From assembly GCF_900116295.1 (NCBI RefSeq), contig NZ_FPAF01000001.1, forward strand, positions 929,279 to 993,278: DNA of 64,000 nt, in the 5' to 3' direction. Of the stretch, positions 58,370 through 58,844 are shown piece after piece; positions within the stretch are counted from its first letter, which is position 1, and every line of letters begins with the position of its first letter. The notes beneath the pieces were generated by a model, which saw nothing but the letters and a program-made list of their open reading frames with translations, was not told the origin of the DNA and did no database searches. The translations under genes were made by a program, and so were the position numbers. The stretch is from Bacillus sp. 103mf. GTDB lineage: Bacteria; Bacillota; Bacilli; Bacillales; Bacillaceae_G.

Positions 58370-58844
58370 CTATCTAAATCGATTTATTACGTACATAATA
58401 AAAGATAATACAATACTTATCACAATACACGTAATGACAGGAAAATAAAAGGTAACTTTCCCCTTTTTCACAAAAATATCGCCTGGAAGCCTACCTATAA
58501 AGTGAAACTTCCATCAGTGGGGATTTTTTCATCCCCCACTGATGGTTAGTTGAACCAATCGGGCTTTTACGGACAGTTATCCCCCCACCTATCTTCTTTA
58601 GAAAAGCGGAAGCGGCTCGCTCAGAAACACAGGACGTTGGAGTCCCTGACAAAGAGGCGCTTTTTGCCTCGTCGGAGGGGGCGAAACGACCGGAGATTCT
58701 AGCCGCTAGAGCTGGACAACGATTCTCTCTCAATCTTGAGGTGAGGGTCTTACTGCCCACGAATAGCGGGATAAACTTCCAAGCCAATCCAACAACAATG
58801 AAGAAAATACCTACTTTAATGAGCAGCTTTGGCATATCCGTCAT
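58370..58844 (-). pseudogene. yrzS: DUF2905 membrane protein (YrzS), disrupted by bcr1
   Basis: Two parts of one small gene lie either side of a bcr1 copy. The N-terminal 24 codons (MTDMPKLLIKVGIFFIVVGL, AWKF) start at 58844, overlapping the ruvB stop in ATGA; the C-terminal part (IGRLPGDIFVKKGKVTFYFP, then a hydrophobic helix and INRFR) ends at 58370. Removing 269 bp plus one ATAAA copy joins them in frame as a 66-residue protein with two helices around the conserved GRLPGDI motif of DUF2905. B. subtilis yrzS holds the same place between ruvB and queA. The present frame reads into the repeat and stops at 58491. Confidence 0.93.
58497..58775 (-). mobile_element. bcr1 element, long form, inserted in yrzS
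   Basis: Core 58502-58770 (269 bp), same length as the copy at 41.8 kb, flanked by exact ATAAA repeats (58497-58501 and 58771-58775), i.e. TTTAT on the minus strand. It contains the terminal hairpin, the central CCCCCACC/AGGTGAGGG hairpin and the internal module (about 58594-58729). It encodes no transposase. Confidence 0.95.

What the first reader, a model, noticed from the sequence alone, without database searches (positions are those of the whole stretch)
58370..58844. bcr1 insertion inside yrzS with exact TTTAT duplication and a perfectly restorable frame
The 269-bp element is flanked by identical ATAAA copies. Removing the element plus one copy rejoins codons so that AWKF is followed directly by IGRLPGDIF, giving a 66-codon DUF2905 gene with correct frame and stop. 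This shows clean insertion with 5-bp target duplication by an element without its own transposase, and a probably recent loss of yrzS in this strain.
Basis: partly seen in the sequence, partly recalled or inferred. Interest (0 to 1): 0.8.

Follow-up and report, generated by a model that had tools for sequence, protein, structure and literature searches.

The report
Composite bcr1-like repeat interrupting yrzS gene
A small mobile DNA repeat that already carries a second, foreign repeat in one of its hairpin loops has apparently jumped as a unit into a small gene of unknown function; similar repeats sit in other Bacillus-like bacteria, and what moves them is still not known.

Summary
The insertion is real. 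Identical ATAAA copies (58497-58501, 58771-58775) flank 269 bp inside a DUF2905 (yrzS) gene between ruvB and queA. The two gene pieces, compared apart and never joined, match contiguous parts of the 65-66-codon ORF present in 19 of 19 family genomes held.

The 269 bp is not plain bcr1: it is a 149-bp bcr1-like frame with a complete 120-bp repeat of another family in its first stem-loop. Three of five such elements in this window carry that insert at the same junction, so the composite most likely moves as a unit. Genome G240 holds an independent composite subfamily, with other cargo in the second hairpin loop.

They lack terminal inverted repeats and show covarying stems above conserved TTAA/CTAA feet, mostly TTTAT ends and a moderate replication-strand bias. 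This suggests IS200/IS605-like single-strand transposition in trans. Against it: RAYT genes show no association, and 5 of 16 high-copy genomes have no detectable Y1 transposase.

Recency within the strain, and the host's group, could not be tested. New variant of a known kind.

The parts
58776..58844 (-). N-terminal part of the interrupted DUF2905 gene (yrzS), start codon to the insertion
   Evidence: matches the first residues of homologous ORFs
58771..58775 (-). left TTTAT copy (ATAAA on +)
58719..58770 (-). 5' arm of the bcr1-like frame (first strand of the first stem)
   Evidence: nhmmer model positions 1-50 of 147, E 2e-9
58599..58718 (-). 120-bp insert: full-length member of an independent repeat family, in the loop of the first stem
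   Evidence: same junction at 41.9 kb and 49.5 kb
58502..58598 (-). 3' arm of the bcr1-like frame (core, CTAA foot, right-end hairpin)
   Evidence: nhmmer model positions 50-147, E 1e-28
58555..58570 (-). conserved 16-nt core between the two stem-loops
   Evidence: alignment A1; searched
58511..58545 (-). right-end hairpin, with CTAA at its 5' foot (58546-58549)
58497..58501 (-). right TTTAT copy (ATAAA on +)
58370..58496 (-). C-terminal part of the interrupted DUF2905 gene with its stop codon
   Evidence: PF11146 E 8e-17 on the piece 58373-58501
41760..42026 (-). second composite bcr1-like element with the same insert at the same junction (intergenic)
   Evidence: (93% identical over 201 nt)
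49451..49658 (+). third composite bcr1-like element, right-end hairpin deleted
24228..24370 (-). simple bcr1-like element without insert
   Evidence: E 1e-33
29821..29966 (+). simple bcr1-like element without insert
   Evidence: E 5e-31

Best explanation
A long, composite member of the bcr1 kind of repeat inserted as one 269-bp unit into a TTTAT within yrzS and interrupts the gene after codon 24. The composite arose earlier, when a complete copy of another repeat (120 bp) settled in the loop of the first stem-loop of a bcr1-like element; that loop is not needed for movement, so the composite kept moving. The element encodes no enzyme and must be mobilised in trans. Most likely mechanism (inferred, about 0.35): single-strand transposition of the IS200/IS605 kind, in which a Y1-type HUH enzyme reads two subterminal hairpins and cuts at TTTAT next to each end, so that the 'duplication' is one target-borne and one element-borne copy. 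Shown: composite anatomy, shared junctions, interrupted gene, covarying stems with conserved feet, absence of terminal inverted repeats, moderate strand bias. Inferred: movement as a unit, loss of yrzS function, enzyme class.
For: Three of five elements in the window carry the same insert at the same junction, with different flanks. The insert ends agree with full-length copies elsewhere; matches in at least 16 of 199 genomes, and a tandem array in G007 away from its one bcr1-like match. A second composite subfamily: in G240 stretches fetched around bcr1-like cores, 11 of 18 hits to a module lie 73-75 nt downstream of such a core, in the right-end hairpin loop. Uninterrupted ORF in 19 of 19 family genomes. 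For the single-strand reading: outer 12 nt of the two ends match as inverted repeats at no better than 1-5 of 12 in 52 copies, 3 of 12 in the finding's element. In 98 parsed elements, 19 distinct first-stem and 32 distinct second-stem pairings, feet TTAA in 42 of 54 and CTAA in 65 of 84. Element strand equals the G-rich strand in 45 of 68 in G011, 36 of 51 at E<1e-20 against a baseline of 46% for TTTAT outside long ORFs (p 0.0006), 20 of 23 between convergent or divergent genes, and 80 of 123 over six genomes (p 0.001). TTTAT is a documented target of IS200/IS605-type IStrons (passage of PMC4227781).
Against: Y1 mechanism: RAYT genes are no commoner in genomes with four or more core sites (10 of 16 against 167 of 283, Fisher p 1.0). 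Five of those 16 genomes have no PF01797 match at E 1e-6; in one of them, G120, the four copies that I looked at (of seven core sites) are closely similar, so apparently recent. No autonomous partner with bcr1-like ends was found in the stretches examined. Among co-directional genes the strand bias vanishes (22 of 42 in G011); outside G011, tandem copies in G085 removed, it is weak (35 of 55, p 0.058); in the window it is 3 of 5. Composite as a unit: a simple copy could have landed in yrzS first and gained the insert by recombination with another composite.
Confidence: 0.8

Rival explanations
1. A DDE-type transposase moves bcr1 as a MITE, and the two TTTAT are a true 5-bp target duplication with strict target choice.
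For: Direct repeat of 5 bp at both ends; the literature calls bcr1 a MITE or MITE-like (passages of PMC3446304, PMC3733652). Strict TTTAT choice would also give the pattern.
Against: No terminal inverted repeats (1-5 of 12 outer bases match in 52 copies). No copy of 52 has an identical non-TTTAT pair. The strand bias is not expected.
Confidence: 0.2
2. A simple bcr1 copy interrupted yrzS first, and the 120-bp insert arrived later in place, by gene conversion from another composite.
For: 93% identity over 201 nt between the 58.6-kb and 41.9-kb composites would allow conversion.
Against: Needs two events where one suffices; all three composites share the junction while their arms differ.
Confidence: 0.12
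3. An enzyme outside the Y1 and DDE classes (for example a site-specific recombinase) mobilises the family.
For: Five of 16 high-copy genomes lack detectable Y1; [quoted passage not shown]
Against: No candidate enzyme was looked for beyond Y1 and RAYT; many of the assemblies are in several contigs, so an absence is weak.
Confidence: 0.35
4. The insertion is old or harmless: yrzS is dispensable, or the 117-aa chimera still works.
For: Of 80 named loci, 55 have ruvB just upstream of queA, and 35 of these 55 show no DUF2905-like ORF there (33 of them have under 150 nt between the two genes). The reading frame stays open for 93 more codons, through the element and a few bases beyond.
Against: The chimera lacks the conserved GRLPGDI part and gives no Pfam match. 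Both gene pieces are free of other lesions, and this is the only one of the three composites with both TTTAT intact, as expected of a young insertion.
Confidence: 0.3

Closest known systems
bcr1 repeat of the Bacillus cereus group
   Same: Length of the frame (147-position model here; 147 bp quoted from the literature in a table of PMC2267715), TTTAT motif, multi-copy, mostly intergenic, no gene of its own
   Different: Carries a 120-bp foreign repeat in its first loop and sits inside a gene; the published consensus letters were not available, so the name rests on length, TTTAT and recall
IS200/IS605-derived non-autonomous elements and group A IStrons
   Same: T-rich pentanucleotide target, two stem-loops with conserved tetranucleotide feet, no terminal inverted repeats, some replication-strand bias
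   Different: TTTAT also at the right end; no Y1 gene inside and none detected in some host genomes
REP elements with RAYT (TnpA_REP)
   Same: High-copy hairpins with a conserved tetranucleotide foot; G011 has four RAYT-like genes (the two scanned score 77 and 78 bits against a cut-off of 80)
   Different: Foot is CTAA/TTAA, not GTAG; no co-occurrence with RAYT over 299 genomes
MITEs
   Same: Short, non-coding, mobilised in trans, flanked by short direct repeats
   Different: No terminal inverted repeats

Membership tests
bcr1 | about 147-bp interspersed repeat | tested here: met
   Simple copies fit a 147-position model; the finding's copy has 149 bp of frame plus a 120-bp insert
bcr1 | TTTAT at both ends | tested here: met
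   58497-58501 and 58771-58775; 35 of 52 G011 copies
bcr1 | match to the published consensus sequence | not testable with these tools
   The 2004 paper is not held; the 2011 paper was seen only in reference lists
bcr1 | restricted to the B. cereus group | tested here: inconclusive
Whether these count as bcr1 depends on the unseen consensus; the host's own group is untested
IS200/IS605-type element | hairpins near the ends instead of terminal inverted repeats | tested here: met
IS200/IS605-type element | target specificity on the 5' side only, no target duplication | tested here: inconclusive
   TTTAT on both sides; the two copies vary independently, which fits either reading
IS200/IS605-type element | Y1 transposase available in the genome | tested here: inconclusive
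   11 of 16 high-copy genomes have PF01797, 5 do not; host genome not held
IS200/IS605-type element | lagging-strand (G-rich strand) insertion bias | tested here: inconclusive
   80 of 123 over six genomes; strong in some contexts, absent among co-directional genes
REP/RAYT system | association with a RAYT gene | tested here: not met
   Fisher p 1.0; no bcr1-like match in the fetched stretches around the RAYT cluster of G011
MITE (DDE) | terminal inverted repeats | tested here: not met
   Outer 12 nt: 1-5 of 12 match in 52 copies, 3 of 12 in the finding's element
DUF2905 (yrzS) | Pfam PF11146 over the gene | tested here: met
   C-terminal piece E 8e-17, positions 27-64 of 64; the N-terminal piece gave no match within the chimera and was compared by eye with homologues

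The most novel reading that the evidence does not exclude
bcr1 is one branch of a wider superfamily of single-strand (HUH-type) transposing hairpin elements in Bacillus relatives: an enzyme in trans reads the hairpin feet and TTTAT, while both hairpin loops are free cargo sites. Foreign repeats have entered these loops at least twice, and the composites have spread as new, larger mobile elements, one of which broke yrzS.
Probability: 0.3. Interest if true: 0.7.

Novelty: new variant of a known kind. Interest (0 to 1): 0.45.

Why it matters
How bcr1 moves was not settled in the passages that I could read. Composite subfamilies show which parts of the element are dispensable (both loops), and the feet, the core and TTTAT name the parts that an enzyme would have to read, which makes the question testable with purified HUH enzymes. 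Elements of the same frame in a Pseudalkalibacillus and in other genomes of the order call into question whether this kind of repeat is confined to the B. cereus group.

Tried and rejected
RAYT as the mobilising enzyme: attractive because G011 has four RAYT-like genes and 93 right-end hits (control 2), but co-occurrence over 299 genomes gave no association. An autonomous partner sharing the ends: four stretches in G006 matching only the last 25-26 nt proved to be shortened copies. The 269 bp as a single bcr1: rejected. Segmental duplication as the cause of the three composites: rejected, their flanks differ. Viral contigs: no match to two exact patterns. Phages: none. Host identity through PDB relatives: uninformative. 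RNAalifold on the MAFFT alignment placed only 14 pairs, 8 of them with a change on both sides, because stems of divergent copies were misaligned; I used the per-copy parse instead, which found the first stem in 54 and the second in 84 of 98 elements (one mismatch in 8 bp allowed). A first version of that parse had a faulty filter and found nothing. A strand test on short G006 loci gave 7 of 14; on longer stretches it gave 9 of 14. The insert alone does not fold better than shuffles (z -1.2).

Full report
Observation. The window holds ATAAA at 58497-58501 and 58771-58775, with 269 bp between them. On the minus strand the 74 nt up to and including the left TTTAT encode 24 residues from a start codon, and the 132 nt from the right TTTAT on encode 43 residues and a stop. 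The downstream piece is DUF2905. In 19 of 19 genomes of the family of G001, a 65-66-codon homologous ORF lies upstream of queA, and the two window pieces match contiguous parts of it. I compared the pieces apart and joined nothing. Of those 19 relatives, 3 have exactly TTTAT at the homologous place. The gene is often missing elsewhere: of 80 named loci, 55 have ruvB within 1200 nt upstream of queA, and 35 of the 55 show no DUF2905-like ORF there; in 33 of the 35 the gap is under 150 nt.

What the 269 bp is. A search with the region found relatives of its two ends close together in G011, about 4 nt apart in several copies, and relatives of its middle in tandem in G004 and G007. The frame (97 + 52 bp) matches a family whose simple copies fit a 147-position model. 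The middle 120 bp is a full-length copy of another repeat family: matches in 16 of 199 genomes at E 1e-5, a lower bound because at most about four candidates were scored in most genomes; ends compared. At E 0.01 the window has five such elements: two simple (24.3 and 29.9 kb) and three composite (41.9, 49.5 and 58.6 kb), all three with the insert at the same junction. Their flanks differ. One nested insertion followed by spread of the composite is the simplest account. The copy in yrzS is the only composite with both TTTAT intact and is probably the youngest (inference).

A second composite. In the G240 stretches that I fetched around bcr1-like cores, 11 of 18 hits to a short GC-rich module lie in the loop of the right-end hairpin of such elements; the other 7 belong to a longer separate repeat. 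Both loops of the frame have thus taken up foreign sequence and been propagated.

Distribution. A 16-nt core (one mismatch allowed) occurs in 81 of 299 genomes of the order of G001; 16 have four or more sites, and the control pattern never exceeds two per genome. Among the copies printed, elements with TTTAT at both ends were seen in G240, G262 and G190 and in G263, G228 and G120; G085 shows near forms and tandem copies. The one named full-length case outside the cereus group is a Pseudalkalibacillus hwajinpoensis plasmid, with TTTAT at both ends; a Peribacillus asahii plasmid has only the right end. The literature describes bcr1 as specific to the B. cereus group (passage of PMC8725734; title of the 2004 paper in reference lists). 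No cereus-group record appeared among the plasmid hits, and I did not test whether that collection holds any, so whether the host belongs to that group is untested; the nearest QueA found is 83% identical.

Mechanism. The outer 12 nt of the two ends are no inverted repeats: 1-5 of 12 match in 52 copies, 3 of 12 in the finding's element. In 98 parsed elements both stems occur in many paired versions (19 and 32 distinct), while the feet stay TTAA (42 of the 54 with the first stem found) and CTAA (65 of the 84 with the second). The finding's own element belongs to a minority whose first foot is TTCG. The interior of one simple G011 copy folds far better than shuffles as single-stranded DNA (z -8.1). 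Of 52 full-length G011 copies, 35 have TTTAT at both ends, 14 at one end and 3 at neither, and none has the same other pentamer at both. The element strand lies on the G-rich strand in 45 of 68 G011 copies (one tandem pair counted as two), rising to 18 of 23 for the best preserved. Of the 65 with an ORF on each side, it is 20 of 23 where neighbouring genes are convergent or divergent, but 22 of 42 where they are co-directional. Five other genomes, G085 tandem copies counted once, give 35 of 55 (p 0.058); all together 80 of 123, p 0.001. The window gives 3 of 5. The split by gene orientation was made after seeing the data. These features resemble IS200/IS605 elements, whose cleavage sites are chosen through tetranucleotides 5' to the palindromes (passage of PMC8266576) and some of whose relatives insert after TTTAT (passage of PMC4227781). 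That lagging-strand insertion predicts the G-rich strand is my own knowledge. TAA in both feet is the reverse complement of TTA within TTTAT; reading it as a guide is inference.

Against this mechanism. RAYT genes (E 1e-6) occur in 177 of 299 genomes and in 10 of the 16 high-copy ones: no association. Five of the 16 have no Y1 match, G120 among them although its four inspected copies are closely similar. The enzyme is therefore unknown; I put the Y1 reading at about 0.35.

Effect on the host. The interrupted frame runs on as a 117-aa chimera without a Pfam match, so loss of yrzS function is likely but not shown. A consensus scan finds two terminator-like sites on the gene's strand inside the insert (0.7 expected by chance) and none at the bcr1-like hairpin, so an effect on queA downstream cannot be excluded; queA keeps its own start 19 nt beyond the yrzS stop.

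Literature. I saw passages of PMC6542083, PMC3446304, PMC4227781, PMC8266576, PMC2267715, PMC3733652, PMC8725734, PMC4853749 and PMC4877379. The 2004, 2007 and 2011 bcr1 papers were not read. That composite bcr1 and relatives outside the group are unreported is therefore only 'not found' in the searches.

Noticed in passing
window 3367-3629, 32928-33219, 7149-7234, 37429-37514, 61309-61643: Another interspersed repeat family: a common 67-nt stretch in five places, two copies extended to about 260-290 nt and one tandem pair at 61.3 kb near a BsrF-like RNA (61757-61867).
   Followed up: no
window 40757-40986: T-box leader (RF00230) upstream of the ORF at 39418-40689, close to the 41.9-kb composite element.
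   Followed up: no
L272 7701-9635 and 18747-19364 (G011): Four RAYT-like Y1 genes in one region, three in tandem with similar spacers just upstream of a Mg-chelatase-like gene; the first is truncated.
   Followed up: partly
L374 and L372 (G085), L169 2444-2679 (G006): Tandem bcr1-like elements that share the middle TTTAT-like pentamer.
   Followed up: partly
L322-L341 (G240): A longer separate repeat whose middle resembles the module found in the right-end hairpin loops.
   Followed up: partly
G007:C1:3412678-3413166: The 120-bp insert family stands as a tandem array of four copies with a period near 123 bp.
   Followed up: no
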